A stretch of 15,625 nucleotides of DNA from Nitrospiraceae bacterium. GTDB lineage: Bacteria; Nitrospirota; Nitrospiria; Nitrospirales; Nitrospiraceae. This document shows positions 1-13,316 of this stretch, piece after piece (the first letter of the stretch is position 1; the number at the start of each line of letters is the position of its first letter). The notes below the pieces were generated by a model that saw only the letters and a list, made by a program, of their open reading frames with translations, did not search any database and was not told the origin of the DNA. A program made the position numbers and the translations under genes. The DNA lies in NCBI GenBank assembly GCA_005800255.1, contig SYGW01000039.1, positions 1 to 15,625 on the forward strand, in the 5' to 3' direction.

Positions 1-945
1 ATGGCCGTGTTCGAGCGGGCCACGAAATCCGTCGTCTTCATTTCAAACACCGCGATTCAGCGGGACCCCTGGTCGTTCAATCTCTTCGAAGTCCCGCAGG
101 GGTCCGGTTCCGGATTCGTGTGGAACAAGCAGGGACATATCGTCACCAATTTTCATGTCGTCTACGGGGCGAATTCGATCACCGTCACGCTGGCGGATCG
201 GACGGAACACAAGGCCACGCTCATCGGCGCCGATCCCGATCACGATGTGGCGGTGCTGCAGATCCGCGCGTTGGAAGAGGCGCTTCCGCCCCTCGCAGTC
301 GGGACCTCGCGGGATCTGCGAGTCGGGCAGAAGGTCCTGGCGATCGGGAATCCCTTCGGGCTCGACCATACGTTGACGACCGGCGTGGTGAGCGCCTTGG
401 GGCGGACGATCAAGTCTCTGTCGAACCGGACGATCGAAGGAGTCATCCAGACCGATGCCGCCATCAATCCTGGAAACTCAGGCGGGCCGCTGCTGGATAG
501 CGCCGGACGTGTGATCGGGGTGAACACACAGATCATGAGTCCCAGCGGGGCCTTCGCGGGAATCGGCTTTGCCGTTCCGGTGGACACGGTCAACCGTATC
601 GTGCCGGAGCTGATCAAGTACGGCAAGCTTATCAGGCCAGGGCTCGGAGTCTCGCTCGTGCCGGATGCGATGGCTAAGCGGTGGGGGATCAAGGGGCTGA
701 TTATCGGCAAGGTGTCGCCAGGCAGCGGAGCGGAGCAGGCAGGTTTGAAGGGCGCGCGCGAGTCCTCCTCCGGGCGTGTGGAATTGGGCGACATCATCCT
801 CTCGGTCGATGGCAAGCCAGTCGGGACTCTGGACGAACTGATGGATGCGATGGAACGGCACAAGGTCAACGACCGGGTTATGGTCGAAATCCTGCGGGGA
901 ACCAGCAGGGAACGGGTTTCCGTGACCCTCCAAGCCGTCAATTAA
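1..945 (+). CDS. htrA: HtrA/Deg-family trypsin-like serine protease with one PDZ domain (5' end probably outside the window)
   Basis: A periplasmic or membrane-anchored quality-control protease is the expected role. The chymotrypsin-type domain covers about residues 1-205 and shows the full catalytic triad: His52 in TNFHVV, Asp82 in HDVAVL and Ser160 in GNSGGPL. A single PDZ domain follows (about 212-310), with the insert and the GRVELGDIIL-type strand seen in plant/cyanobacterial Deg1-like proteins. The frame is open from base 1. The ATG there may be the true start, but no signal peptide or membrane anchor follows it, and family members usually have 40-100 more N-terminal residues, so the real start is probably upstream of the window. 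The gene ends 77 nt before the proteasomal ATPase gene on the same strand. Whether the two are co-transcribed is unknown. Confidence 0.93.
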   Translation: MAVFERATKSVVFISNTAIQRDPWSFNLFEVPQGSGSGFVWNKQGHIVTNFHVVYGANSITVTLADRTEHKATLIGADPDHDVAVLQIRALEEALPPLAVGTSRDLRVGQKVLAIGNPFGLDHTLTTGVVSALGRTIKSLSNRTIEGVIQTDAAINPGNSGGPLLDSAGRVIGVNTQIMSPSGAFAGIGFAVPVDTVNRIVPELIKYGKLIRPGLGVSLVPDAMAKRWGIKGLIIGKVSPGSGAEQAGLKGARESSSGRVELGDIILSVDGKPVGTLDELMDAMERHKVNDRVMVEILRGTSRERVSVTLQAVN

Positions 946-1022: not shown

Positions 1023-2780
1023 ATGAGCGACCGTCGACCCACTGGACCACAAGACCAAGACTTCAAGGGGAAGCCGGAGGAGGGTGCGAATCCCTCGATG
1101 CGCATGGGCTCAGACCCGCTTGAGCTGATTGAAGAATGTCTCGCTTCATTCCCCGACAGTGACCCACGCCAGAAGATCCTCTACAAACTGCGTCATGCCG
1201 TGACTCTCGGTCAGGCGGCGCAGCAACAGCGGGAAGTTGAATTTAAAAAAGCCACGGACGTGATCGCGAAGCTCGTCGCGCCGGCCAATCGGATCGGCAC
1301 CCTGCTTGAGGTGCCGGGCGAAGGCCTGGCCAGGATCCTGGTAGGGGGCGCTGAGTACTATGCCAGCGTCGATCCCAGAGTGCAGGCTGACGAGCTGAAG
1401 ATCGGCGCACAGATTCTGGTCAACGAAGCCTTTGCGGTCATTAAGATCTTGGGTTATGACCGGAATGGCCCAGTGTTGAAAGTCGTGGAAGCCTTGCCGG
1501 ATGGGCGGCTTCGGTTCGAGCAGGAGATGGGCCGGCAGGTCTTGATCCTCCAACGGTCGAGCGATCTGCTCGGGGTGGACTTGAAGGCAGGCGATGAGGT
1601 GCGGATCGAGCCCAGTCTCCATGTGGCGATCGAAAAGTTGGAAGACAAACAATCCAAGCTCCACCTCCTGGACGAGGTCCCCACCGTGACCTGGGAGCAG
1701 ATCGGCGGACAAACGGAGGCGATTGCCGCCATCAAGAAGGCGATCGAGTATCCCTTGCTCCATGCGGACACCTTTCAGCGCTTTAAGTTTACTCAGCCGA
1801 AGGGTTTTTTATTGTACGGGCCTCCCGGTTGTGGCAAGACCTTGATCGGCCAGGCTGCTGCCGCCAGCCTCGCCAAGCTGGCGGGGGAGGCGAGCCAGGC
1901 GACGGCCGGCGCCAAGGGCGATAAGCCGCCGGTGACTCGCGGAGCTTTCCTCCATATCAAGGGGCCGGAAATTCTGAACATGTGGCTGGGAGAATCGGAG
2001 CGGATGGTCAGGGATCTCTTTGCCCAGGCCCGCGCTCGCAGGAAGGAAGGGGCGCTGCCCTTTATTTTCATCGATGAAGCGGAGTCGGTGCTTGGGACGA
2101 GACGGGCCTCTCGGTCCTTTAATATCTCTAGCACTCTCGTGCCGATGTTCTGTTCCGAGATGGACGGGATCGAGTCGCTGCAGGATGTGGTGATCATTCT
2201 GGCCTCGAACCGGCCTGACCTGATTGACCCGGCAGTGCTCAGGCCAGGGCGTATCGATCGCAAGATCAAAGTGAGCCGCCCTAATCGTGACTCGGCTGCT
2301 GCGATTTTGAACGTCTATCTGACGGAGGACCTGCCGCTGGACCGGCAATGGATCGATCAGCACGGCGGGGACCGGAAGAAATCCTGCGCCGACCTCATCG
2401 ACCATGCGCTTCCCGCGATCTTCTCGCGCGTCGATGAGAACCGGCTCCTCTCGATCAGGCTCAGAAGCGGACAGAATAAGGTGCTCTATCGGGGCGATCT
2501 GATCAGCGGCGCGATCCTGTCTTCCATGGTGCAACGGGCGAAGGAGCGGGCCATCGACCGGATGATTGCGGCAGGTGCGGACGAGCCAGGCGGCATGACT
2601 CTGGAGGACCTGGTGAGCTCCGTCCATGCAGAGTTCCGGGAGGGCGAGATGTTGCCGCCGGACGATGCAGCGGAAGAATGGCTCAAACTCCTCGATCACC
2701 ATCCGGAGCAGGTCGTCGGAGTCTCCTCGTTCCGGAGAGGGCGGCAGTCCGAAGAAAAGTTGATTGGACAGATTATCTAA
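1023..2780 (+). CDS. arc: proteasome-activating AAA ATPase ARC (Mpa homologue)
   Basis: Hexameric cytosolic ATPase that recognises modified proteins, unfolds them and threads them into the 20S core. The 585 residues contain an N-terminal helical, coiled-coil-like stretch (about 45-85, the Pup-binding part in mycobacterial Mpa), two OB-fold interdomains (about 88-205) and an AAA module. That module has Walker A GPPGCGKT (266-273), an aromatic pore loop NMWLGESE (319-326), Walker B FIFIDEAE (347-354) and the RPGR arginine-finger region (407-410). A good RBS (GGAGG at 1011-1015, 7 nt spacing) supports the start. Mycobacterial Mpa ends in GQYL, whose penultimate Tyr helps dock on the alpha ring; here the end is GQII, without Tyr. 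It is the first gene of the arc-dop-ubact-prcB-prcA-pafA order, which fixes its role even though AAA proteins are common. Confidence 0.96.
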   Translation: MSDRRPTGPQDQDFKGKPEEGANPSMRMGSDPLELIEECLASFPDSDPRQKILYKLRHAVTLGQAAQQQREVEFKKATDVIAKLVAPANRIGTLLEVPGEGLARILVGGAEYYASVDPRVQADELKIGAQILVNEAFAVIKILGYDRNGPVLKVVEALPDGRLRFEQEMGRQVLILQRSSDLLGVDLKAGDEVRIEPSLHVAIEKLEDKQSKLHLLDEVPTVTWEQIGGQTEAIAAIKKAIEYPLLHADTFQRFKFTQPKGFLLYGPPGCGKTLIGQAAAASLAKLAGEASQATAGAKGDKPPVTRGAFLHIKGPEILNMWLGESERMVRDLFAQARARRKEGALPFIFIDEAESVLGTRRASRSFNISSTLVPMFCSEMDGIESLQDVVIILASNRPDLIDPAVLRPGRIDRKIKVSRPNRDSAAAILNVYLTEDLPLDRQWIDQHGGDRKKSCADLIDHALPAIFSRVDENRLLSIRLRSGQNKVLYRGDLISGAILSSMVQRAKERAIDRMIAAGADEPGGMTLEDLVSSVHAEFREGEMLPPDDAAEEWLKLLDHHPEQVVGVSSFRRGRQSEEKLIGQII

Positions 2781-2880
2781 AGACGTGAAGCGTGAGGCGT
2801 GAGAGGTGAAAGGTGTAGATCTTCCGTTTTTGATTTGGACGATTTCCCTCGTTTCACGTTTTACCGTTCACGTCTAACGA
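2781..2880. repeat. imperfect inverted-repeat element between arc and dop (copy 1)
   Basis: The gap between arc and dop is filled by a low-complexity element of GTGA/CGTGA units on the left and their complements on the right. The outer arms AGACGTGAA (2781-2789) and TTCACGTCT (2867-2875) are perfect 9-bp complements, and weaker complementarity continues inward (GGTGAAA against TTTCAC). The right arm TTCACGTCTAACGA recurs almost unchanged before prcB (4673-4691). Read as RNA, the arms could form a long stem with G-U pairs between the arc stop and the dop start. No clear Shine-Dalgarno sequence precedes dop, so the element forms the whole dop leader. It looks like a dispersed REP/MITE-like intergenic repeat; that class is inference. 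Confidence 0.7.
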
Positions 2881-2883
2881 ATT

Positions 2884-4410
2884 ATGCGACTTTTTGGGAT
2901 CGAAACAGAGTATGGGATCACGAGGGAAGACCAGGAGGCGGTCGATCCGGTCGTGGAGTCGATGGAGCTGGTGCGGGCCCATCTGACTGCCTCCTTCGAG
3001 CGGCGCTGGGACTATGGGGGGGAAGATCCTCATGAGGATGCGCGGGGATTCCGGGTCCTAGGCCTGCAACAGGACAAAGAAGAAGACGAGTTCGCCAAGG
3101 TCGATGCCCATCGGCCTTTTTCGTTTCATGAGATGAAGAGCGATCTGGTCCTTCCGAACGGAGCCCGTTTCTACAACGACCATACGCATCCTGAATATTC
3201 CACGCCGGAATGTCGGACGTTGAAAGATCTCTTGGCTCATGACCGGGCCGGGGAGCGGATCGCCCAGAGGGCGGCGGAGCGCCGCAACCAGGTGCTGGGC
3301 GGCTCTTCGGTACAGCTCTACAAGAACAACACGGACTTCCACGGCCATAGTTACGGTTGTCACGATAACTATCTCGTCTCACGTTCGATCCCCTTTCCCG
3401 CCTTGACGGCCGGCCTGCTGCCCTTTCTGGTCAGCAGACAGATCATTGCGGGGGCAGGCAAAGTCGGGGTGGAGGGGCAAGAGAGCGGCTTCGTGCCTGG
3501 CTCCTATCAGCTTTCTCAGCGGGCCGACTTTCTGGAGACGGATCTGAGCGTCGATACGATGCACAACCGGCCGATCCTGAATACGAGGGACGAGCCCCAT
3601 GCGGTGCGGGAGAAATACCGGCGGCTCCACCTCATCATCGGCGATGCCAATATGTGCGAATATGCCACGGCCTTGAAAGTCGGGACGACGCAGTTGGCTC
3701 TGGAGTTGATCGCGCGAGGGGCTGCCCCGGTGTTTGAATTGGAACAGCCGGTCACGGCGGTGAAGCAGTTGTCTCGCGACCAGAATTTGAAGGCCACGGT
3801 CCGTCAGAAGAACGGCAGTACGATTACAGGCCTGGATATTCAAGAGCAGTATTGCCTCGCGGCCCAGAAATATTTAGCCGGGGCCGATGCCGAGACCGAT
3901 TGGGTCTTGCGCGAATGGTCCGCGACGTTAGGGTTGCTGGCCGGTGATCGGCGGCACCTGGTCGGGAAGCTCGATTGGATCACCAAGCTCTGGCTGCTGG
4001 AAACGTTTATGCAGGAAGAGAAGCTTAGCTGGGAGGACCCCTGGCTGGCGAGTTTGGACTTGGAGTACCATAATATAAATCCTGAGCGCGGGCTTTTTCT
4101 GGGGCTGGAGTCAGAGGGGAAGGTTTGGCGGATGACCTCGGAACAGGACATCGAGTCTGCCTTCGTGGCCGGCCCGGTCGATACGAGAGCCGGCATTCGC
4201 GGCCTCTGCATCAGACGGTTTCCGGATCAGATCAAGTCGATGCAGTGGGAGCGGATTCAGTTCAGCGGGGGGCTGCTTCCGCGAACGTTGGAGATGGGCG
4301 ATCTCTTCGAACCGGAGGCTGTGCAAGCCTGTGCGCAGCTCTTCGAGCGAGCGGCATCCCCGGTGGATGCGCTGACCGCATGGAATAGAGAAAAGGAGTG
4401 CCGATCATGA
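2884..4410 (+). CDS. dop: Dop: deamidase/deconjugase for the ubiquitin-like modifier
   Basis: Member of the Dop/PafA carboxylate-amine ligase-like family. In actinobacteria Dop deamidates the C-terminal Gln of Pup and cleaves Pup from substrates; here the substrate would be UBact. The 508 residues start with the family signature GIETEYG (5-11, nucleotide/Mg-binding glutamates). The long charged Dop-loop region lies at about 40-80. The conserved catalytic-region Asp is Asp99, in FYNDHTHPEYSTPEC. KNNTD (147-151), YGCHDNY (157-163), NTRDEP (233-238) and GDANM (253-257) follow. The Dop loop and the gene order (between the ATPase and the modifier) mark this paralogue as Dop and not the ligase. The start is set by the N-terminal motif; no good RBS is visible, because a repeat element abuts the ATG. 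Its TGA overlaps the modifier gene's ATG (ATGA). Confidence 0.95.
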   Translation: MRLFGIETEYGITREDQEAVDPVVESMELVRAHLTASFERRWDYGGEDPHEDARGFRVLGLQQDKEEDEFAKVDAHRPFSFHEMKSDLVLPNGARFYNDHTHPEYSTPECRTLKDLLAHDRAGERIAQRAAERRNQVLGGSSVQLYKNNTDFHGHSYGCHDNYLVSRSIPFPALTAGLLPFLVSRQIIAGAGKVGVEGQESGFVPGSYQLSQRADFLETDLSVDTMHNRPILNTRDEPHAVREKYRRLHLIIGDANMCEYATALKVGTTQLALELIARGAAPVFELEQPVTAVKQLSRDQNLKATVRQKNGSTITGLDIQEQYCLAAQKYLAGADAETDWVLREWSATLGLLAGDRRHLVGKLDWITKLWLLETFMQEEKLSWEDPWLASLDLEYHNINPERGLFLGLESEGKVWRMTSEQDIESAFVAGPVDTRAGIRGLCIRRFPDQIKSMQWERIQFSGGLLPRTLEMGDLFEPEAVQACAQLFERAASPVDALTAWNREKECRS

Positions 4411-4598
4411 ACTACAGCTCAATGCCGGAACGCCGCGAAGGACCAGGCAATCCGATGCCGAAGGCTCCGAGTCCGTCCGAGGAGGGGGGACCGAAGAGGC
4501 CTGAGACCGGGTCGCCGGACAAAGACAATTTGCTCAAACGTATGAGGAAGGTGGATCCGAAGCAGGCAGAGCGGTATCGGCAACGGACGGGACAGTAA
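4407..4598 (+). CDS. ubact: UBact: Pup-like ubiquitin-type protein modifier ending in Gln
   Basis: Small (63-residue) intrinsically disordered modifier expected to be joined through its C-terminus to target lysines by PafA and to carry targets to the ARC-proteasome. The first 40 residues are rich in Pro, Gly, Glu, Ser and Lys. A charged, probably helical segment follows (about 40-60, KDNLLKRMRK then QAERYRQR), and the protein ends Arg-Thr-Gly-Gln. A C-terminal Gln implies deamidation to Glu by Dop before ligation, as for mycobacterial Pup. It differs from Pup in ending TGQ rather than GGQ, which fits the UBact family described for Nitrospirae. Start: ATG at 4407, overlapping the dop stop by 4 nt, with AAAAGGAG at 4391-4398 and 8 nt spacing. 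An in-frame GTG at 4398 is possible but lies inside that RBS. Lys19, 30, 39, 44, 47 and 52 are possible self-conjugation sites. Confidence 0.93.
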   Translation: MNYSSMPERREGPGNPMPKAPSPSEEGGPKRPETGSPDKDNLLKRMRKVDPKQAERYRQRTGQ

Positions 4599-4691
4599 AA
4601 GCGTAAAAAGTAAAAGGTGAAACGTGAGAGCTGCGGACGGCGATATGCATAGGCTCGCTGTCGATCACGTTTTACGTCTCACGTCTAACGA
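4599..4691. repeat. imperfect inverted-repeat element between ubact and prcB (copy 2)
   Basis: A second element of the kind found before dop. Its left part consists of GTAAAA/GGTGAAACGTGAGA-type units (4601-4630). Its right part TCACGTTTTACG...TCACGTCTAACGA (4665-4691) nearly matches the right arm of copy 1 (2853-2880). The left part matches the reverse complement of the right part at about 15 of 20 positions in the best alignment, so a stem-loop is possible. It ends directly at the prcB RBS (GAGGTGA, 4690-4696). The inner segment (4631-4660) is not shared with copy 1, so only the arms are conserved. Confidence 0.68.
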
Positions 4692-4698
4692 GGTGAAA

Positions 4699-5472
4699 AT
4701 GGGGATGCAAGGGGATTTTTTTCAGCTGTTGAAAGAGCAGGGCTATACGCTTGGCACACCGGCGACGGTGGGGGACGGTCATGCGCTCACGAATGCCACG
4801 ACGATTCTAGCCTTCAAGTATAGGGATGGCGTGCTGGTGGCGGGAGACCGTCGCGCGACCGCCGGCAATATGGTGATGTACGACCGCACGGACAAGGTGC
4901 TGGAGATTGACCGATACAGTGTGATGGCGATTGCCGGAGTCCCTGCGACCGCCTATGAAATGGTGCGGGTCCTGGAACATTCTTTCAAATATTACCGGAG
5001 AACGCAGCTCCAGGAATTGAGTTTTGACGGCAAGCTGCGTGCCATCTCTAAACTCCTGAAGGACAATGTGCCTGCTGCTTTGGCCGGGACCGGCGCGGTC
5101 GTGCCGGTATTCGCCGGCTACGATCTGGAGCAGGGCTCGGCCAAGATCTATTTTTACGACATCCTCGGGGCGGAATTCGAAGGGGTGGAATATGCCGTGT
5201 CCGGGTCCGGGTCCCCGACGATCCGGGGCATCCTGCATTATCTGAATACCTGGGGCGATCAGCCCCTCAATCAGCTGCCGGAAGAGCAAGCCATGGTGCA
5301 GGCCTTGCGATTGCTCACCAGCGCGGCGGAATTCGACTCGGCAACCGGCGGCGTGAACCGGGAGGCGAGTCTCTATCCCGTGATCAAGCTGATTACAGGA
5401 GCCGGTGTGCAGACGATTCCTGATGCGACCTTGAAACCCCTCTACGAATCACAGGTGGTGCGCTATGTATGA
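4699..5472 (+). CDS. prcB: 20S proteasome beta subunit (catalytic)
   Basis: Forms the two inner proteolytic rings of the core particle. The precursor has a propeptide of about 33 residues, removed autocatalytically to expose Thr34 (NA|TTILAFKY). Counting that Thr as 1, the catalytic Asp17 (GDRRAT) and Lys33 (TDKV) fall at exactly the family spacing, so the enzyme should be active. SGSGS and DSATGG motifs of bacterial beta subunits are present further on. Start: the frame is open further upstream (GTG at 4624), but that would translate the intergenic repeat. ATG 4699 follows GAGGTGA closely, and ATG 4705 (protein starting MQGDFF) is the other reasonable choice. The gene overlaps prcA by 8 nt, consistent with stoichiometric production of both subunits. 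Confidence 0.95.
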   Translation: MGMQGDFFQLLKEQGYTLGTPATVGDGHALTNATTILAFKYRDGVLVAGDRRATAGNMVMYDRTDKVLEIDRYSVMAIAGVPATAYEMVRVLEHSFKYYRRTQLQELSFDGKLRAISKLLKDNVPAALAGTGAVVPVFAGYDLEQGSAKIYFYDILGAEFEGVEYAVSGSGSPTIRGILHYLNTWGDQPLNQLPEEQAMVQALRLLTSAAEFDSATGGVNREASLYPVIKLITGAGVQTIPDATLKPLYESQVVRYV

Positions 5473-6295
5473 AGAACCCTATCGCTGGGTCGAAGCCGTC
5501 GGCAATCGCCGCCAGTATCTGGATGAGCAGTTCAAGCAGGGGAGTCCGGTCGTGGCCCTGACCTATGAGGGCGGTATCCTTCTGGTCACGGTGAGCAAGG
5601 GGACCCCGAAGCTCTACGAGATCTACGACCGGCTGGCCTTGGGCGGAATGGGGCACCCCACCGATTTGGAAAAGCTGCGTTTCAGCCTGCTCGAAATGGC
5701 ACATGTCGAGGGGTTCAACCGTTCGCCCTCTGATGTCACTGGCTCGCGATTGGTGAAGTATGGCATTGCTCCGGTCATTAAACAGGCCTTCGAGGAAGTC
5801 TATAAGGCGCCGTTCATCGTGCGTATCCTGGTGGCAGAGTTGGGGCAGAAGCCGGAGAAGGATGCGCTCCTGACGATCAACTACGATGGCACTTTCGAAG
5901 AATCGACCGGCTGCGCGGTCCTGGCTGCCACGTCTGCTGCCCAGACGAAGATGACGGCTTATCTCAAGGAGCAGCAGTCTGCGATGTTATCGTTGGAGCA
6001 GGCGCTGGATTTGGCCTTGCGGGCCTGGGCCATCGGTTCCCTTGCCCATCAACAGGAAGAGTCGGACCAACGGGCCGAGACTGAGTCATCCGCAAGCGGA
6101 GCCGGCGCAGCGGTCGTTGCGATTCCCAACGTCGACGTGCTGAGGGAACATGTGCGGAACATTGCGGGAGGCCGGACGATCGAATGTGCGGTCCTTGAGC
6201 GGCAGGCTCCCGGCACCTCCAAGTACCGTTCGCTCAAGCCAGCCGATTTGTCACGGCTGTTGCCGAAGGCCCTTCAATCAGTCGTGGCGAACTAA
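5465..6295 (+). CDS. prcA: 20S proteasome alpha subunit
   Basis: Forms the outer rings that gate the core particle and provide the pockets where the ATPase C-termini dock. The 276 residues begin with the N-terminal gate helix region and then the conserved strand GSPVVALTYEGG (about 26-37). LYEIYDRLALGGMG (about 50-63) is characteristic of alpha subunits. There is no N-terminal catalytic Thr. After the core fold ends (about residue 190) there is a Ser/Ala/Glu-rich linker (about 195-215) and a tail of about 60 residues, so it is somewhat longer than mycobacterial PrcA (about 248). The ATG lies 8 nt inside the end of prcB, with AGGTGGT a few nucleotides upstream. The stop is separated from the pafA ATG by one base (TAAGATG). 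Confidence 0.93.
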   Translation: MYEEPYRWVEAVGNRRQYLDEQFKQGSPVVALTYEGGILLVTVSKGTPKLYEIYDRLALGGMGHPTDLEKLRFSLLEMAHVEGFNRSPSDVTGSRLVKYGIAPVIKQAFEEVYKAPFIVRILVAELGQKPEKDALLTINYDGTFEESTGCAVLAATSAAQTKMTAYLKEQQSAMLSLEQALDLALRAWAIGSLAHQQEESDQRAETESSASGAGAAVVAIPNVDVLREHVRNIAGGRTIECAVLERQAPGTSKYRSLKPADLSRLLPKALQSVVAN

Positions 6296-6296
6296 G

Positions 6297-7781
6297 ATGT
6301 TGAACCGTATTTTCGGGCTGGAAACCGAATACGGACTCTTGGTGAATGAAGACCAGCCGGACCATTCTCCCACCTGGTTTGCCCACAAGATTCGCGACCA
6401 TCTCTTTCATGTGCAACGGCGCGGCGTTCTGGATCTGCACCATCGGGGGCATGATGAACCGCCCGGCAACGGGGGATTTCTCACCAACGCCGGGCGCATG
6501 TACCTGGACATGGGCCATCTGGAATGGGCCTCGCCGGAATGTGAATCGCTCGGCGATGCGGTGGCGGCCGACCGGGCTGGCGATCAGTTGCTGCAGGATG
6601 CCGTTCACGAACTCAGTCTGGCCGACCAGGTGTCCTTGATCAAGAACAATGTGGACCATGACACCGATGCGACCTTCGGGTCGCACGAGAACTACCTTGT
6701 GCCGCGAGGCTTCCCATTTACCAGGCGCGGGCTCGGACCCTTCGTGACTTTCCTGGTCACCAGGCAGATCTTTACCGGAGCAGGACGTGTCGGCATGGCC
6801 GGCCCGCAGGACGCCTGGATTCAGATGGATCGGCTCATCGTGCCGCGTGGGGCGAACCTGCGGCATGGGCAGCAGCCTGCCATGCCGTTCCAGATCTCTC
6901 AGCGGGCCGATTATATCGTGAACGACTTTTTCGAATGGGTGCAGCAGAATCGCGCCATCGTGAATACCAGAGATGAGCCTCTGGCAGACCCGAATCAATA
7001 CCGCCGCATTCATCTGTTGCTGGGCGATTCGAACATGGCCGAGGTCGCGACGGCCTTGAAGTTGGGCACGACGGGCCTGGTCCTGCAATTGATCGAAGAG
7101 GGGCATGCGCCGAAGGGTCTGGAGCTCCATGAGCCGGTCGAAACGATGCAGGAGCTGTCGCAGGATCAGGAGCGGCAATGGATCGTTAGGTTGCAATCGG
7201 GGAAGACGATCTCCGCGATCGATATTCAGGAAGCCTTTCTCGCGGCGGCGCAGGAACATTATCGAGGGCAGGACGACGAAACCGATTGGGTGCTCGATCA
7301 ATGGGAAGCGGTGCTGCGCGATCTTCGCGGGGACTATACGAAGCTGGTGGGCCGGGTCGATTGGGCCTCGAAACTCTGGCTGCTGGAAACCTTTCGCGAG
7401 GCGGAGCAGCTGACTTGGGCCGATCCGGCGCTGAAGAGCCTTGATCTGGAGTATCACAACCTCCATCAAGGCAAGGGGCTCTATTATGGTCTGAAGGAAG
7501 AGGGGAAGGTTCCGCGGCTCACGACTGACAAGGCGATTGCTTTAGCGATGGACCATCCACCCCGCAATACGAGGGCCTTTGGACGGGGTGAACTGGTGCG
7601 GCATTTATTGGCTGCGGGACTTCCGGTTGAGGCGGCCGGGTCTCCGCTGGATGCGCGGTTTTCCCCCTCCTATGTGATCAATTGGTCGATTTTCCAATTG
7701 CGCGGGCAGGAACCCTTTCCCATGCCGGATCCGTTTAAGACCTACGCGAAGGAAGTGCGGACCTATCTTCAGACTGCCTGA
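6297..7781 (+). CDS. pafA: PafA: ligase that conjugates the ubiquitin-like modifier to proteins
   Basis: Would phosphorylate the C-terminal Glu of UBact with ATP and join it to a substrate lysine. It is 494 residues long and paralogous to the dop product. Signature GLETEYG (7-13) is at the N-terminus and Asp71 (MYLDMGHLEW) sits at the position of the catalytic-region Asp. KNNVD (116-120), GSHENYL (128-134), SQRADY (201-206), NTRDEP (223-228) and GDSNM (243-247) follow. It lacks the Dop loop and closes the operon, as PafA does in actinobacteria. Two departures from mycobacterial PafA are visible. The Asp loop is one residue shorter and reads GHLEW where PafA has GSHPEY. About 24 extra residues lie between GAG (161-163) and SQRAD, including an Arg/Gln-rich stretch. 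The ATG is 1 nt after the prcA stop with no strong RBS, so translational coupling is likely. The 3' end overlaps the convergent hydrolase gene by 13 nt. Confidence 0.94.
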   Translation: MLNRIFGLETEYGLLVNEDQPDHSPTWFAHKIRDHLFHVQRRGVLDLHHRGHDEPPGNGGFLTNAGRMYLDMGHLEWASPECESLGDAVAADRAGDQLLQDAVHELSLADQVSLIKNNVDHDTDATFGSHENYLVPRGFPFTRRGLGPFVTFLVTRQIFTGAGRVGMAGPQDAWIQMDRLIVPRGANLRHGQQPAMPFQISQRADYIVNDFFEWVQQNRAIVNTRDEPLADPNQYRRIHLLLGDSNMAEVATALKLGTTGLVLQLIEEGHAPKGLELHEPVETMQELSQDQERQWIVRLQSGKTISAIDIQEAFLAAAQEHYRGQDDETDWVLDQWEAVLRDLRGDYTKLVGRVDWASKLWLLETFREAEQLTWADPALKSLDLEYHNLHQGKGLYYGLKEEGKVPRLTTDKAIALAMDHPPRNTRAFGRGELVRHLLAAGLPVEAAGSPLDARFSPSYVINWSIFQLRGQEPFPMPDPFKTYAKEVRTYLQTA

Positions 7782-8785
7782 TCGTTTTTTTCGCCTGTTC
7801 TGATCGATTCGACGATGCGGTTTTCCACCCAAAATCTGTCCTCATTGCTCCGCGCCCCCTGAATGAATCCGCAGTGGCCGCCATAGTGGGGAGCTGCCAG
7901 CCTGATGAGGGGGTTCCGCTTGATGGCCGCGAGGCCGAACATCGAATAGGGAATAAAGGGATCGTCCTGTGCTGTGACGATGGTAGTCGGCACGGCAATC
8001 TTTTCCAGCACGTGCCGCGATCCCGCGCAATCGTAGTAGTCCGGCCCGCTGGCGTAGCCTCCATCCGGGGCCGTGTACCGGTGGTCGAACTCGCTGATGA
8101 TGTGGATGCGGTCCAGCTCTGTGAGGTCCCATCTCCCTGGAAAGAGCGCCGCCTTGCGTTTCATGCGCGCTTTGAGCTTGGTCAGGAAATGATAGTGGTA
8201 GAGCCAGTTGCGAGGCTCTTCCAAGGCTTTGGCACATTGGGTGGGATCGATATTCGGACAGACCGCGATCGTTCCGGCCAGCGCTGCTTCCGACGAGCCG
8301 AGTTCCCCTGCCGCTTTCAGGACGAGATTCCCTCCCATCGAATAGCCGACCAGCCAGATACGGGTGAGTCGATCTAGGTTCGCCAATTCCTGGACGATGG
8401 CTCGATAGTCCTGGCTCAAGCCGCTGTTGTAGAGGGTCGGCGTCAGCCGTTCGGTGCCGCCGCAGGTCCGCTGGTTGAGGCGGACGACGTTCATCCCCGC
8501 GCGATAGGCCTTCGCGGCGATCCCCTGCATGTAGTGGGACTCGCTGGAGCCTTCCAGTCCATGCACGAGCAGCAGAGTTTGGCAGCCTGTCCGGTCCGGC
8601 TGCCAGTGGCAGAAGCCGAGCAGCTGGGTCTTGGGATCGGTGGTGAAGAGCCGTGATTCAGCCGGTATCTCGTCCAGGAGCGTCGGGCGCGGCCAATAGT
8701 CTGGAACGATTGTCATGAGGTGCTGGTTGCGGAGCAGGGTTGCCGGTGTGAACCCGCGCCAGTTGGGTGCCATAGAGGCTATCAT
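7769..8785 (-). CDS. YheT-family alpha/beta hydrolase
   Basis: Predicted serine hydrolase of the YheT/ABHD-type family (esterase-like, physiological substrate unknown). Visible features in the 338 residues: an N-terminal cap-like part with NQHLMTIVP (about 20-28), the oxyanion-loop motif HGLEGS (75-80), the nucleophile elbow GYSMGG with Ser149, an acidic residue in QDDPF (Asp274 or Asp275), and His304 in YGGHCGF. These give a complete Ser-Asp-His triad in the right order. The start at 8785 has GGAAGA 7 nt upstream; a second in-frame ATG at 8773 lacks a good RBS. No signal peptide is seen. The gene runs towards pafA and their coding ends overlap by 13 nt. It probably has no functional link to the proteasome operon beyond adjacency. 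Confidence 0.92.
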   Translation of the reverse strand: MIASMAPNWRGFTPATLLRNQHLMTIVPDYWPRPTLLDEIPAESRLFTTDPKTQLLGFCHWQPDRTGCQTLLLVHGLEGSSESHYMQGIAAKAYRAGMNVVRLNQRTCGGTERLTPTLYNSGLSQDYRAIVQELANLDRLTRIWLVGYSMGGNLVLKAAGELGSSEAALAGTIAVCPNIDPTQCAKALEEPRNWLYHYHFLTKLKARMKRKAALFPGRWDLTELDRIHIISEFDHRYTAPDGGYASGPDYYDCAGSRHVLEKIAVPTTIVTAQDDPFIPYSMFGLAAIKRNPLIRLAAPHYGGHCGFIQGARSNEDRFWVENRIVESIRTGEKNDQAV

Positions 8786-9429: not shown

Positions 9430-9708
9430 TTATCCTTGGTAGGCTTGCCCAAGGGCGGCGGACTCGCCCTTATGAGCGATCAGCTGCCCCGTAGCGCTGA
9501 CGGCCTGCATATTGATGGCATTGTGCTTTGCCGCATCGCAGACGATGACGCAGAGCTCACAGCCCTTACAACGGTCGATGGTGACTTCTGCAACCATCTT
9601 GCCCGGGTTCAGGTCCAGGCAGTTGGCCTCCGGACAATACATAATGCAGAGGCGACATCCCTTTTTCGCCACGCATTTCTCATCGATGACTTGCGCCACG
9701 TTATACAT
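9430..9708 (-). CDS. porD: 2-oxoacid:ferredoxin oxidoreductase, delta (ferredoxin-like) subunit
   Basis: Electron-transfer subunit of 92 residues with two [4Fe-4S] sites. Site one is Cys12-x5-Cys18-x2-Cys21-x3-Cys25-Pro, with a wider first spacing than the classical CxxCxxCxxxCP. Site two is Cys47-x2-Cys50-x2-Cys53-x3-Cys57, with Asp after the last Cys where Pro is usual. Cys30 is an additional cysteine. It would pass electrons between the catalytic core and free ferredoxin. AGAAGGAA about 9 nt upstream supports the start. It is the last gene of the operon, 23 nt after porG, followed by the terminator at 9369-9399. Confidence 0.92.
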   Translation of the reverse strand: MYNVAQVIDEKCVAKKGCRLCIMYCPEANCLDLNPGKMVAEVTIDRCKGCELCVIVCDAAKHNAINMQAVSATGQLIAHKGESAALGQAYQG

Positions 9709-9731
9709 GCAAGCGGGTTCCTTCTCTCTCG

Positions 9732-10439
9732 TTAAGCGGCCATGGCAGGATTGCCGACTCGTAGCTCATACTTATGCTCTTCGGCCCATTTGCTGGCGAT
9801 GTCATAGGCGGCCTTTACGGTGGCCAGGTTCTTGGCCAGCAACATTTCCTTTTTAGCGAACTTCTTCTTGATCGCTTCATCCAGGGACGCAGTCCCGCCT
9901 GAGGCGACGAACTTCTTCCCGAACCGCTCCTGCAAGGCGCCGTCCAGGGCTTCCATGGAGACACACTTGGTGATGCCGGAGACTGCTCCGATCATCGACA
10001 TATTCGTCGAGAGCTCGGTGCCGGCCACTTCGATTGCGAGCTCAGTGCCCGCGATGTAGAACAGGGAGACGTTTAAGTCCTTCAGTCGCTGCACGTCCTC
10101 GTCAGACAACAGATTCTGGTCGGAGTTGATGATGACGAGGCCGCCTTCTTTCACGCCGGAGTAGAAGGGCATTGTGTAGCTTTTCCCCATCGTGATGACC
10201 TGGGGGTGGAATACCTGGATGACGTCGGGGAATACCAGTTCGCCGCGGTCGTAGATTCGCTCGATGCCGATCCGACAATAGCTTTCCGCCGGCGCCATGC
10301 GCTTTTCGGCGCCGAAGAAGGGATTGGAGATCGAGAACTTGCCGTCGCGGTTGGCCGCCATGGCCATGACATGCGCGGCGGTGACGGCGCCTTGTCCGCC
10401 TAATCCCGACATCCGGATGTTCAGTCTTTTCTTGATCAT
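9732..10439 (-). CDS. porG: 2-oxoacid:ferredoxin oxidoreductase, gamma subunit
   Basis: Gamma subunit of the pyruvate/2-oxoglutarate:ferredoxin oxidoreductase superfamily (235 residues, slightly longer than the usual 180-200). The N-terminus has the family motif SGLGGQGAVTAAHVMA (11-26). Residues 42-58 (FGAEKRMAPAESYCRIG) match the conserved region that contacts the rest of the complex. It ends with a charged helical segment of about 40 residues. AAGGAG 8 nt before the ATG supports the start. It lies between porB (24 nt) and porD (23 nt), consistent with one transcript. Confidence 0.93.
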   Translation of the reverse strand: MIKKRLNIRMSGLGGQGAVTAAHVMAMAANRDGKFSISNPFFGAEKRMAPAESYCRIGIERIYDRGELVFPDVIQVFHPQVITMGKSYTMPFYSGVKEGGLVIINSDQNLLSDEDVQRLKDLNVSLFYIAGTELAIEVAGTELSTNMSMIGAVSGITKCVSMEALDGALQERFGKKFVASGGTASLDEAIKKKFAKKEMLLAKNLATVKAAYDIASKWAEEHKYELRVGNPAMAA

Positions 10440-10463
10440 GATCGTCTCTCCTTCAGAATCGGA

Positions 10464-11369
10464 TTAGGCACCTTGAGCGGCGAGCTGCTTGGCCGCGGCC
10501 TTCTTTTCTTTGTCCTTGGCGGCCATCTCTGCCAGGAGTTGCTTGGCCGGTTCGCTGATGTATTCTTTGTAGGCGAAGCGCTCGGTCGGCTTCTCCGAAT
10601 CCCGCATTTCTTGCAACCCTTCCATGCTGTTCTTCCCGATTTCGAGGATGCAGGGCGTATAGAGCTGGAGATAGGTCGGGCCGATTTCGCGCGCGATCAT
10701 GACCGCGTTCTTGATGACCTTTTCGATCAGGGACGGCTTGCTGACGGTGCATTGGACCACGTAGTGGCAGCCCGATTCGCGAGCGATTTCCGGCAGACGG
10801 ACCTTGTCGAAGAGTTTTCCGACTGGCGCCATCTTGGCCACGAAGCCCTTCTGCATCAGACCGCTCTCCTGGCCGCCCGTGTTGGCGTACAGTTCGTTGT
10901 CGAAGCAAATCGTGGTGAATTTTTCCTGGCGGAACCAGGCTTGGAGCGTCATGTCGAGGCCGATATCGACGGTGGCGCCGTCGCCGGCCAGCACGACCAC
11001 GTCTTTCGTCCGGCCCGGGAAGCGGACGCTTAAGGCGCGTTTCAAGCCGGAGGCGATAGCGTTCTGGTTGCCGAAGAGGGAGTGGATGTTATGCACGGCC
11101 ACCATGGGGAACACCAGGCTGGTGCAGCCGGTGGAGCCGACCATGACAGTGTCTTCCGGGCTAGGCAAGGAGGCCAAAATGTAGCGGAAGGCCATGGATT
11201 CCGGGCAGCCGGCGCAGAGCGAATGTTGCTCGATCAACTCCTTGCTATTGCCGATGTCTTTCCAGCCCCGGTCTTCCTTGCCGTAGGTCGCGCTCTTGAC
11301 CAGGTCTTGATAATCGGACGGCATGATGTCGTACAGGTCTTCAGAAATACTGATACGTTCCTTGCTCAT
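10464..11369 (-). CDS. porB: 2-oxoacid:ferredoxin oxidoreductase, beta subunit (thiamine-diphosphate and Fe-S binding)
   Basis: Carries the thiamine diphosphate site and the proximal [4Fe-4S] cluster. Cys52 and Cys55 (LCAGCPE), Cys81 (STGCTS) and Cys240 (YTPCIL) match the four-cysteine spacing of known pyruvate:ferredoxin oxidoreductases. The ThDP/Mg motif runs from GDGATVDIG (129-137) to DNELYANTGGQ (157-167). The C-terminus ends in a Lys/Ala/Glu-rich tail (about 275-301). A strong RBS (GAGGAGG, 5 nt spacing) precedes the start. The active-site set is intact, so a working enzyme is expected; pyruvate and 2-oxoglutarate specificity cannot be told apart with certainty. Confidence 0.95.
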   Translation of the reverse strand: MSKERISISEDLYDIMPSDYQDLVKSATYGKEDRGWKDIGNSKELIEQHSLCAGCPESMAFRYILASLPSPEDTVMVGSTGCTSLVFPMVAVHNIHSLFGNQNAIASGLKRALSVRFPGRTKDVVVLAGDGATVDIGLDMTLQAWFRQEKFTTICFDNELYANTGGQESGLMQKGFVAKMAPVGKLFDKVRLPEIARESGCHYVVQCTVSKPSLIEKVIKNAVMIAREIGPTYLQLYTPCILEIGKNSMEGLQEMRDSEKPTERFAYKEYISEPAKQLLAEMAAKDKEKKAAAKQLAAQGA

Positions 11370-11431
11370 GATGGCCTCCTCAATACGTGCGGCTTATTTA
11401 GGGCGTGTCCTGCTTGCTTGCTTCGAACGGA

Positions 11432-12640
11432 TTAGCCGCGGCTGGCCATCGACATGGTGCGCATGCCAAGCAGCGTCTTGATTTCGGAAACGATGATTTC
11501 CGGTGGCATCGTCATGCCGCCGCAGACGTGCGGGCCTGCATGGACCCGTTCGCTGTTCGGGATGGTGGCTTTGATTTCCTTGGCCAGCCACCCAGTTACA
11601 TTGAACTCTGGGACGATGATGTGTTTGGCGTTCTTCGTTGCTTCACGGATTTCTTCACCCGGCCATGGCCGCAAGACCTTGACCTTGACCAGTCCGCAAC
11701 GGATACCTTCGTCTTCGAGGAGCCGAATGGCCTCGCGGCCCTGTGAGACGGCCGTGCCGGAGGCGACGATGATGACGTCGGCGTCGGTATTTTCCGTTTC
11801 GATCAGTCCGTTCAGCCACTTGATCGTGTGTTTGCGGGACCGTTCCACCGCCGCCCAGACTTCTTGCTGCCAGGAGGCGTGGGTGGCGTAGCTGATGTAG
11901 TTGCTCTTCATGACGAATGGATCGCGCATCATTCGGACCGGTGGACATTCCATGTCCATGCAGGGCACAGGCGAGCGGTAGGGGTCATAGGGAGGCAGGC
12001 ACATGTCTGCCGGGGTCAAGTTGATCACGTCCTTGGTGTGCGTGACGAAGAACCCGTCGCAGCAGAGCGCCAAGGGAAGGTGCACATCCGGCTCTTCCGA
12101 GACCATATAGCCCTTGAGGATCCAATCAAAGAAGTCCTGTGCGGTTTCCGCATGCCAGACGAGCATGCCGGTATTCAGCAGATAGGCGATTTCGAGGGTG
12201 TCGGGCTGAATCGAGAGCGGCGAATTGATGCCGCGGCAGGTGACGATCATCTGGATCGGCAACCGCGCGCCGGACCACATCGGAAAGTTTTCCATCGCGC
12301 GCATCGTGCCGGGGCCCGCGGTCGTCGTAAAGACGCGTGCGCCGCCGAAGGCGGCTCCCGCGCATTGCGACATGACGGCGAATTCGCTCTCGCCGCGGAA
12401 GTAGTCGCCGATGTAGCCTTCGGCAAAGAGTTCGCCGATCAAGGCGGCCGCTTCGCTCTGCGGGGTAATCGGGTAGGCGATCATCACGTCGCAGCTGGCT
12501 CGCCGGAGGGCTTCCTTGATAACTTCGCTCCCTGTGTAGAACGAGGGCGTGCGTGGCGCCTCGTTCATCATCTTCCAGGTGTCGGTAAAGGTCTGCCCTT
12601 TTTTGTTTTTTGTGCCGATGACCGAGTGTGTGTCTGCCAT
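11432..12640 (-). CDS. porA: 2-oxoacid:ferredoxin oxidoreductase, alpha subunit
   Basis: Substrate-binding and pyrimidine-binding subunit (402 residues). Motifs include YPITPQSE (56-63), GESEFAVM (83-90) and TTTAGPGT (105-112). The C-terminal half is the transketolase-C-like domain (about 275-390; DVIIVASGTAVSQGREAI, then VKVKVLRPWP). Length and layout match stand-alone PorA-type alpha subunits and not single-chain PFORs. AAGGAGA 7 nt before the ATG supports the start. porB follows after 62 nt. Together with PorB, G, D and E it would catalyse reversible CO2-fixing 2-oxoacid synthesis with reduced ferredoxin, a key step of the reductive TCA cycle in Nitrospira. Confidence 0.95.
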   Translation of the reverse strand: MADTHSVIGTKNKKGQTFTDTWKMMNEAPRTPSFYTGSEVIKEALRRASCDVMIAYPITPQSEAAALIGELFAEGYIGDYFRGESEFAVMSQCAGAAFGGARVFTTTAGPGTMRAMENFPMWSGARLPIQMIVTCRGINSPLSIQPDTLEIAYLLNTGMLVWHAETAQDFFDWILKGYMVSEEPDVHLPLALCCDGFFVTHTKDVINLTPADMCLPPYDPYRSPVPCMDMECPPVRMMRDPFVMKSNYISYATHASWQQEVWAAVERSRKHTIKWLNGLIETENTDADVIIVASGTAVSQGREAIRLLEDEGIRCGLVKVKVLRPWPGEEIREATKNAKHIIVPEFNVTGWLAKEIKATIPNSERVHAGPHVCGGMTMPPEIIVSEIKTLLGMRTMSMASRG

Positions 12641-12680
12641 GGTTCGGTCTCCTTTCGCATTCGTGAGAACTTCAAACGGC

Positions 12681-13316
12681 TTAGTTTGAGGCTCCGCTCT
12701 TGGCTGACGTCAGCCGTGGTTTGACTGTGCCTTTCAACTTCTTCACCCACTCGGCCAGTTTCATGATCTTTTCGACCGATGCGTCGCGGAGGGAGAGCAT
12801 TGCGTCCTCATGGCCGGCTTGCGCGCACATGGCAATCGTGTAGCAGGAAGTGCCGCCACGAATGATTTTGAGCGCTAGGTTCGCCTGGTGGCAATGGACC
12901 CCGACGAACATGCAGCAATCGATTTTATTGTGCCAGATGGTCAGGTTCGGGTGGTTGGGATTGATTTCGACTTCAGGATTGATCTTGGGGTATTTGGGGC
13001 GGTAGTCCGGCATCGGGATCAGCATGGGTGTTTGCCCCGGCTGCACGCATTCTTTCAGTGTGTTGTAGAGGTGCCGGACAGCGGTGGCCTTTTTGGCCGC
13101 TTTCTCATTCCATGCCCACAGGACCAAGGGACCGGGGAAAATAGTCGGCACTTTGGCCATGAGGAATTGCTTCGCCGCTTCTTCGTATGCCTTTTCCTCT
13201 GGGACGATGACACCGTTGATGTGAGCTTCCCCAGGGTTTGGCAAGTAAATGCCCATGCTTGCGGCCGCTGGAGGAAGAAAATGTTCTGGGCCTGGAACGA
13301 CACGATACTGAGTCAT
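12681..13316 (-). CDS. porE: 2-oxoacid:ferredoxin oxidoreductase, epsilon subunit (CODH beta/ACS epsilon-like)
   Basis: Accessory fifth subunit of 211 residues, found in the O2-tolerant enzymes of Aquificales such as Hydrogenobacter and in Nitrospira. Its middle part (about 55-165, WAWNEKAAKKA to CYTIAMCAQAG) resembles the carbon monoxide dehydrogenase beta/acetyl-CoA synthase epsilon family, including DCCMFVGVHCHQANLALK (133-150). Cysteines 90, 134, 135, 142, 158 and 164 are notable, but no standard Fe-S motif is seen, so cluster binding is not claimed. It is the first gene of the operon, 40 nt before porA. GGAGAG 9 nt before the ATG supports the start. Its exact biochemical role is not well established in the family. 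Confidence 0.85.
   Translation of the reverse strand: MTQYRVVPGPEHFLPPAAASMGIYLPNPGEAHINGVIVPEEKAYEEAAKQFLMAKVPTIFPGPLVLWAWNEKAAKKATAVRHLYNTLKECVQPGQTPMLIPMPDYRPKYPKINPEVEINPNHPNLTIWHNKIDCCMFVGVHCHQANLALKIIRGGTSCYTIAMCAQAGHEDAMLSLRDASVEKIMKLAEWVKKLKGTVKPRLTSAKSGASN

What the first reader, a model, noticed from the sequence alone, without database searches (positions are those of the whole stretch)
1023..7781. Complete UBact-type modification and proteasome operon outside Actinobacteria
Seen: six adjacent genes in the order ATPase, deamidase/deconjugase, small modifier, beta, alpha, ligase, with all catalytic residues checked intact (PrcB Thr1/Asp17/Lys33, ARC Walker A/B, family motifs of Dop and PafA). 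Known: the mycobacterial mpa-dop-pup-prcBA-pafA locus has this order, and UBact has been described for Nitrospirae. Inference: a functioning tagging system in a nitrite-oxidiser-like bacterium whose targets are essentially unknown.
Basis: partly seen in the sequence, partly recalled or inferred. Interest (0 to 1): 0.8.

Follow-up and report, generated by a model that had tools for sequence, protein, structure and literature searches.

The report
Nitrospira's second protein-tagging proteasome operon
This is the known UBact protein-tagging and proteasome operon of the nitrite-oxidising bacterium Nitrospira; most related genomes that have it also carry a second, Pup-type system, and the enzyme that should attach the UBact tag appears not to be the usual Pup ligase but a separately evolved relative.

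Summary
In detail: ARC, Dop, UBact, PrcB, PrcA and a PafA-like gene lie at 1023-7781. The 63-aa protein passes the curated cut-offs of Pfam UBact and NCBIfam ubiq_like_UBact. As a UBact operon in Nitrospira it is of a described kind.

(1) Of 245 phylum genomes 84 encode UBact; 77 of those also encode canonical Pup, and 71 of the 77 give exactly four Dop/PafA-family matches (4 give five, 1 three, 1 two). All 22 second operons read in UBact genomes hold ARC, dop, prcBA and pafA, N. moscoviensis included. ARC of the Pup operon ends GHY[LF] (36 of 36 read); ARC of the UBact operon has no penultimate Tyr (0 of 41). (2) The UBact ligase does not group with PafA: UBact Dop and ligase together are split from Pup-system Dop and PafA (98-100% bootstrap, four careful trees). 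Holding all ligases together gives AU p 0.046, 0.019 and 0.053, so this is not settled. Its alpha-loop and the residues beside the catalytic Asp match neither family.

Best reading: a UBact system running beside a Pup system, possibly with an independently evolved ligase. All function is inferred.

The parts
1023..2780 (+). ARC-type proteasomal AAA ATPase (Mpa homologue), 585 aa; Walker A 1818-1841, Walker B 2061-2078; C-terminus GQII, no penultimate Tyr
   Evidence: (TIGR03689 1.9e-126, under its cut-off)
2781..2883 (.). intergenic palindromic repeat between ARC and dop; folds as a long hairpin, z -5.8
   Evidence: (D10, I10)
2884..4410 (+). Dop (deamidase/deconjugase), 508 aa, with Dop-loop; catalytic-site Asp99 at 3178-3180
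   Evidence: TIGR03688 1.8e-137, under its cut-off; 366 bits to 4b0r
4407..4598 (+). UBact modifier, 63 aa, overlaps dop by 4 bp; C-terminus RYRQRTGQ, Gln63 at 4593-4595
4599..4698 (.). second copy of the dispersed palindromic repeat, between UBact and prcB (4596-4698 folds with z -3.4)
4699..5472 (+). PrcB beta subunit, 257 aa with 33-aa propeptide; Thr1 codon 4798-4800, Asp17 4846-4848, Lys33 4894-4896
5465..6295 (+). PrcA alpha subunit, 276 aa, overlaps prcB by 8 bp; Lys in the K[LIV]xE[IVL]YD stretch kept
6297..7781 (+). PafA-like enzyme, 494 aa, putative UBact ligase; Asp71 at 6507-6509; divergent alpha-loop (residues 206-219, YIVNDFFEWVQQNR) at 6912-6953; no Dop-loop

Best explanation
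It is the UBact conjugation-proteasome operon of a Nitrospira species, and probably one of two parallel tag-and-degrade systems in the cell. Inferred working: Dop deamidates the C-terminal Gln of UBact to Glu; the PafA-like enzyme uses ATP to join the gamma-carboxyl of that Glu to lysines of target proteins; Dop can remove the tag; ARC takes up the Pro/Gly-rich, presumably disordered N-terminus of UBact and threads the target into the PrcBA chamber, where Thr1 of PrcB cuts it. A second operon elsewhere in most related UBact genomes would do the same with canonical Pup and its own ARC, Dop, PrcBA and PafA. The UBact ligase is probably not a PafA orthologue but a paralogue that arose within the UBact lineage. 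Shown here: gene content, conservation, selection, co-occurrence of the two systems, distinct tags and ATPase tails, tree position. Inferred: every enzymatic step, the separateness of the two systems in the cell, and that the window's own genome (not held) has the second operon like its nearest held relative G001.
For: UBact profiles. Same gene order in the 40 loci with all six genes. dN/dS 0.02-0.12. In 245 phylum genomes, UBact and Pup together in 77, of which 71 give exactly four Dop/PafA-family matches, 4 five, 1 three, 1 two; Pup alone 36 (28 with two); UBact alone 7 (5 with two); no genome with a modifier lacks such matches. All 22 second operons read in UBact-carrying genomes hold ARC, dop, prcB, prcA and pafA. 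N. moscoviensis: UBact operon at 759-764 kb, Pup-type operon at 3352-3356 kb, pup at 3405 kb. G001, nearest to the window, has the Pup-type operon on C14 and pup on C26. ARC tails: Tyr penultimate in 0 of 41 UBact-type and 36 of 36 Pup-type. Tags: RTG[EQ] in 41 of 42 UBact loci, [KR]GG[EQ] in 43 of 43 Pup frames found by similarity, some of them the same gene in overlapping loci. Tree split UBact enzymes | Pup enzymes 98/97, 100/99, 100/99, 98/98.
Against: No conjugate, activity or expression has been measured. The AU test against a single ligase origin is borderline (p 0.046, 0.019, 0.053). ARC lacks the penultimate Tyr that docks Mpa on its 20S core, so coupling of this ARC to this core is not assured. 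One UBact operon (G252, L154) has no prcBA, so tagging without its own proteasome is possible. The match counts do not fit the simple two-per-tag rule in 6 of 77, 2 of 7 and 8 of 36 genomes, and one genome (G195) has a match and no modifier. The window's own genome is not held.
Confidence: 0.85

Rival explanations
1. The last gene is a true PafA orthologue: Dop and PafA split once, before UBact and Pup systems parted, and the UBact copy merely evolved fast.
For: It lacks the Dop-loop, as PafA does, and shares with PafA Phe at position 84, His/Tyr where PafA has His at 208, and Ile (Val in one of 15) at 209 (A. cellulolyticus Dop numbering). The AU test is borderline: p 0.046, 0.019, 0.053. Foldseek ranks the PafA-Pup complex 4bjr first.
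Confidence: 0.4
2. The PafA-like gene is not a ligase but a second deconjugase or a regulator, and UBact is attached by another enzyme, for instance the PafA of the Pup system.
For: Its Asp neighbourhood has the Dop length (DMGH[LIV]E in 15 of 15, one residue shorter than in 15 of 15 canonical ligases) and its alpha-loop lacks the TT pair that PMC7947786 reports as conserved in both Dop and PafA.
Against: UBact-only genomes exist with just two matches to the family (G164, one contig, 99% complete), so one of the two should be the ligase; it lacks the Dop-loop while the other has it. Asp71 is invariant in 27 of 27.
Confidence: 0.1
3. UBact tagging is mainly non-degradative, or the tagged proteins go to the Pup-type proteasome; the UBact ARC does not open the UBact core in the Mpa manner.
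For: No UBact-type ARC (0 of 41) has the penultimate Tyr of Mpa's GQYL (role of GQYL from passages of PMC8755798). G252 has UBact, Dop, ligase and ARC but no prcBA in the operon.
Against: prcB is present in 41 of 42 loci and has Thr1, Asp17 and Lys33 in 40 of those 41, the exception being the truncated L050. The Lys of the K[LIV]xE[IVL]YD stretch of PrcA is kept in 41 of 41. The UBact-type ARC tails end alike (II, VI, IV or IE in 40 of 41), which fits another docking mode.
Confidence: 0.15

Closest known systems
UBact system (Lehmann et al. 2017, BBRC 483:946; Pfam PF20513, NCBIfam NF033388)
   Same: Modifier family, gene order, host phylum. The paper itself is not in the library; it was seen only as a reference in PMC12751074, its content is recalled.
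   Different: Nothing I tested in the window departs from the family; what is added here is the co-resident Pup system, the ARC tails and the ligase's tree position.
Pup-proteasome system of Actinobacteria and of the second Nitrospirota operon
   Same: Six-part plan, order ARC-dop-tag-prcB-prcA-ligase (actinobacterial order recalled), Gly-Glu/Gln tag end.
   Different: Tag not alignable with confidence (hhalign probability 5%); ARC tail GHY[LF] against mostly II/VI/IE; ligase of another clade; in the genomes of families f1 and f2 that were looked at, the pup gene lies away from its operon.
Two systems L1 and L2 of Leptospirillum ferrooxidans (PMC3511204, Figure 2 legend)
   Same: Two complete copies in one genome, the tag of L2 lacking GGE.
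   Different: Reported there for one species; here both tags are found in 77 of 245 phylum genomes and in N. moscoviensis.
PafA and Dop of A. cellulolyticus, C. glutamicum and M. smegmatis (PMC7947786)
   Same: Fold and catalytic-site Asp.
   Different: PMC7947786 kept only the best Dop and PafA hit per genome (its Phylogenetic Analysis section), so a second pair would have dropped out of its single-duplication tree by design.

Membership tests
UBact modifier | match to PF20513 and NF033388 above curated cut-off | tested here: met
   73.9 bits (27.8) and 77.8 bits (35)
UBact modifier | C-terminal Gly-Glu or Gly-Gln | tested here: met
   ends RTGQ; 41 of 42 loci end RTG[EQ], the exception (L050) is broken
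UBact modifier | encoded beside dop and a pafA-like gene in relatives | tested here: met
UBact modifier | isopeptide conjugates to lysine | not testable with these tools
   needs mass spectrometry or in-vitro ligation
Pup (PF05639) | match to PF05639 | tested here: not met
   the window's 63-aa protein matches only PF20513 at E <= 0.001; UBact v. Pup profiles 5% probability
Dop | Dop-loop and Dop-type residues around the catalytic Asp | tested here: met
   loop present, DHTHPE in 15 of 15 UBact-type Dop
Dop | TIGR03688 above cut-off | tested here: not met
   459.1 bits against 492.3; PMC7947786 also found these two models not discriminative enough
PafA (orthologue) | groups with actinobacterial PafA in a tree | tested here: not met
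   but AU p against one ligase clade only 0.046, 0.019, 0.053
PafA (orthologue) | no Dop-loop | tested here: met
PafA (orthologue) | extra residue after the catalytic Asp (DxGxHPE) and PafA-type alpha-loop with TT | tested here: not met
   DMGH[LIV]E and F[FY][QE]WVQxNR in 15 of 15 UBact ligases; DTGCHPE or DVGSHPE in 15 of 15 canonical ligases
PafA (works like) | ATP-dependent ligation of the tag | not testable with these tools
   inferred from position, Asp71 and lack of a Dop-loop
ARC/Mpa proteasomal ATPase | AAA module plus tandem OB domains | tested here: met
   PF00004, PF17758, PF16450
ARC/Mpa proteasomal ATPase | C-terminal HbYX-like motif with penultimate Tyr | tested here: not met
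   GQII; 0 of 41 UBact-type ARCs
bacterial 20S proteasome | PrcB Thr1, Asp17, Lys33 | tested here: met

The most novel reading that the evidence does not exclude
The UBact ligase arose independently of PafA, by duplication of a Dop-like hydrolase inside the UBact lineage: a second natural hydrolase-to-ligase conversion, reached by loss of the Dop-loop and a new alpha-loop (F[FY][QE]WVQxNR) instead of PafA's TT-bearing one. Nitrospira would then run two separate tag-proteasome systems in one cell, with chemically distinguishable tags (TGE and GGE on lysine) and different ATPase-to-core docking.
Probability: 0.5. Interest if true: 0.7.

Novelty: new member of a known kind. Interest (0 to 1): 0.5.

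Why it matters
No target of UBact was named in anything I saw. Two tags in one cell that leave different tryptic remnants make it possible to ask, from existing or new Nitrospira proteomes, which proteins each system marks, and so why a nitrifier keeps two. If the ligase is a second invention, comparing it with PafA tests which features really turn a Dop-like hydrolase into a ligase, a question so far studied by mutating Dop (PMC7947786).

Tried and rejected

UBact-Pup homology: profile comparison gave 5% probability; left open.

UBact against solved structures: three weak hits, best E 0.0053; dismissed as chance.

Plasmids and phages as a source of comparators: two actinobacterial plasmid records and one unannotated faecal phage record; only the Nonomuraea PafA was used; no dop was found in the stretch fetched.

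A weak second UBact hit in G062 (26.1 bits, under cut-off) has no match to any of the window's genes around it (L049) and was dropped.

Rows dropped before counts: the 89 rows come from 22 UBact-type and 21 Pup-type loci picked by hand (5 Pup-type sequences without the start motif fell out) plus 8 actinobacterial proteins; the careful trees use 61 of the 89, and 50 of the 61. Planctomycete outgroup sequences were not obtained, so the trees are unrooted. Within the Pup side the union of actinobacterial and Nitrospirota Dop is weakly supported (77/49 and 67/33). A first list of Pup sequences was made with a pattern that required the GG[EQ] end; the tag-end count given in this report is, which did not require it. 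Distances between pup and its operon are for 23 genomes picked by eye among those with both on one contig.

Literature: searches. No listing or passage that I saw states that Nitrospira carries both systems or that the UBact ligase is not PafA; of the listed papers I read passages or named sections of PMC7947786, PMC3511204, PMC2588565, PMC8755798, PMC11354881 and PMC12751074 only, and the rest as listings. Lehmann 2017 was not found there, so 'new' is not claimed for co-occurrence. A look for UBact in PMC7203096 found none in the part held.
Full report
What is there. Six genes on the + strand at 1023-7781 encode ARC, Dop, UBact, PrcB, PrcA and a PafA-like enzyme. Dop and UBact overlap by 4 bp, PrcB and PrcA by 8 bp, and 1 bp lies between PrcA and the ligase; ARC-dop and UBact-prcB are separated by about 100 bp, each gap filled by a copy of a palindromic repeat. 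An HtrA-like protease lies upstream (1-945), an abhydrolase and a gene set that looks like a 2-oxoacid:ferredoxin oxidoreductase run the other way downstream. The nearest loci are Nitrospira MAGs (best 98% in the ligase; N. moscoviensis 81%).

Is it real. Both curated UBact profiles are passed with room. Of 147 genomes of the family 115 encode UBact, of 245 of the phylum 84; none of 14 control genomes does. In 42 UBact-type loci read, window included, 40 hold recognisable copies of all six genes (in one of them, L050, UBact and prcB are truncated into each other); one contig starts inside dop, one operon (G252) lacks prcBA. The order is the same in all 40 (passes 36 and flags four only because its script took an upstream-extended frame end for prcB; the 3' ends agree). 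dN/dS against two relatives is 0.02-0.12 in ten comparisons. PrcB keeps Thr1, Asp17 and Lys33 in 40 of 41 UBact-type copies, all but L050.

The second system. A search for Dop/PafA-family genes gave four matches in most UBact genomes where two were expected. Reading other loci showed a full second operon, ARC-dop-prcB-prcA-pafA, with about 33-43% identity to the window's ARC and Dop; all 22 such operons read in UBact-carrying genomes have all five genes. Canonical Pup is found in 113 of 245 genomes, once in each except G208 and G236, which have two matches. In the genomes of the window's family (f1) and its sister (f2) that I looked at, pup has left the operon: in 23 genomes picked by eye with both on one contig, it is 41 to 864 kb away, 41-58 kb in 17 of the 23. 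In loci read from families f3-f8, f10, f11, f18 and f19 it lies in the operon, before prcB. In N. moscoviensis pup lies between genes that look like recJ and a membrane pyrophosphatase (names by recall from the sequence).

Cross-tabulating the same 245 genomes: both modifiers 77, of which 71 give exactly four Dop/PafA-family matches, four give five, one three, one two; UBact alone 7 (five with two, two with four, G070 and G224, in which a Pup may have been missed); Pup alone 36 (28 with two, five with three, two with one, one with four); none with a modifier and no match; one (G195) with a match and no modifier. Matches can be gene fragments on broken contigs (as in G001). UBact alone includes G164, a one-contig genome. 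Most simply, each modifier brings its own pair of enzymes.

Two separate machines. ARC of the Pup operon ends GHYL (27) or GHYF (9) in 36 of 36; ARC of the UBact operon ends II (27), IE (8), VI (4), IV (1) or KN (1, G252) and never has the penultimate Tyr (0 of 41). GQYL with its penultimate Tyr is the main docking determinant of Mpa (PMC8755798, passages). UBact ends RTGE in 31, RTGQ in 10, and is broken in 1 of 42; Pup ends [KR]GG[EQ] in 43 of 43 frames found by similarity, some of them one gene seen in two loci. The window has CAG where two near relatives have GAA, so Gln and Glu interchange among close relatives, and Dop's deamidase step should be needed in some species and not in others. 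UBact and Pup cannot be aligned with confidence.

The ligase. The gene called PafA scores PafA and Dop models alike (322.5 and 322.7 bits) and solved Dop above solved PafA (255 v. 224 bits). In a quick tree of 89 proteins and careful trees of 61, the UBact Dop and UBact ligase together are split from the Dop and PafA of Pup systems, with 97 (SH-aLRT), 98/97 and 100/99 support. The split stands at 100/99 when the catalytic-site and alpha-loop columns are removed and at 98/98 without the longest lineages. Forcing all ligases together costs 23.1, 30.7 and 21.3 log units, AU p 0.046, 0.019, 0.053: against one origin, but not decisive. Gene conversion between neighbouring dop and ligase could also pull them together. 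In the 15 UBact ligases of the alignment the catalytic Asp stands in DMGH[LIV]E, where the 15 canonical ligases have DTGCHPE or DVGSHPE, one residue longer, and all 31 Dop have the shorter form; the alpha-loop reads F[FY][QE]WVQxNR in 15 of 15 and in none of the other 46. The Thr pair that PMC7947786 describes as conserved in both Dop and PafA is Val-Gln, while the Arg is kept (in the Dop of this alignment the second Thr is mostly Met). RDEPH is RDEPL, invariant in 27 of 27. Shared with PafA are the missing Dop-loop, Phe at 84, Ile (Val in one) at 209, and His (9) or Tyr (6) where PafA has His at 208. PMC7947786 (abstract, sections 5, 8, 13 and passages read) kept one Dop and one PafA per genome, so such second pairs were outside its single-duplication tree.

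How it most likely works. By analogy with pupylation: deamidation of UBact-Gln by Dop, ATP-dependent isopeptide formation by the PafA-like enzyme, removal by Dop, unfolding by ARC, cleavage by PrcBA. None of these steps is shown here. The weakest link is ARC docking without the penultimate Tyr; the PrcA Lys of the K[LIV]xE[IVL]YD stretch is present in 41 of 41 (that it is the pocket Lys is recalled).

What is known. UBact was named in 2017 (reference seen in PMC12751074; content recalled) and is a curated family. Pup conjugation in Nitrospirae was noted in 2008 (PMC2588565, passages), and two systems in L. ferrooxidans in 2012, one with a tag lacking GGE (PMC3511204, passages). So the window is a member of a known kind. 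I saw no statement about the ligase's separate position or the pairing of systems across Nitrospirota (searches, mostly seen as listings); the main UBact paper was not found in that library.

Verdict. Observation confirmed; interpretation partly supported; the operon itself is of a known kind. What would surprise a specialist is the possibly independent ligase and the paired systems, which can be tested with a TGE/GGE search of Nitrospira proteomes.

Noticed in passing
window 2781-2883 and 4599-4698: Two copies of a dispersed palindromic repeat fill the ARC-dop and UBact-prcB gaps and fold strongly (z -5.8, -3.4); similar copies occur in 5 of 12 relatives searched, up to 9 per genome, one of them about 100 bp upstream of the orphan pup in G010.
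   Followed up: partly
L154 (G252): UBact operon with ARC, dop, UBact and ligase but no prcBA; its ARC ends KN. A natural case of UBact without its own proteasome, if the MAG is right.
   Followed up: partly
L050 (G104), about 8000-8180: UBact runs at residue 59 straight into PrcB residue 65, losing the tag's end and Thr1; a deletion or an assembly gap.
   Followed up: no
L184-L194: Canonical pup lies away from its operon in the genomes of families f1 and f2 that were looked at, 41-58 kb away in 17 of 23 picked by eye, and within it in the other families read.
   Followed up: partly
L176 (G178), 4584-6259: Pup next to PafA with no proteasome genes found in the locus and one proteasome-family match in the genome, a MAG 77% complete: perhaps pupylation without a proteasome in Nitrospirota.
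   Followed up: no
window 1-945: HtrA-like protease gene upstream of ARC; a homologue lies in the fetched stretch in 19 of 40 complete UBact-type loci, though in two of these it is a distant one on the other strand.
   Followed up: no
MT835496.1, 43724-45079 (phage collection): An unannotated 159-kb faecal phage record holds a 34% homologue of the ligase, with two places in the record.
   Followed up: no
window 9430-13316, minus strand: Genes that look like a multi-subunit 2-oxoacid:ferredoxin oxidoreductase, kept next to the operon in close relatives; names beyond the ferredoxin-like subunit are recalled.
   Followed up: no
G164 (L160): A one-contig genome with UBact but no Pup match and only two Dop/PafA-family matches: a clean UBact-only organism.
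   Followed up: partly
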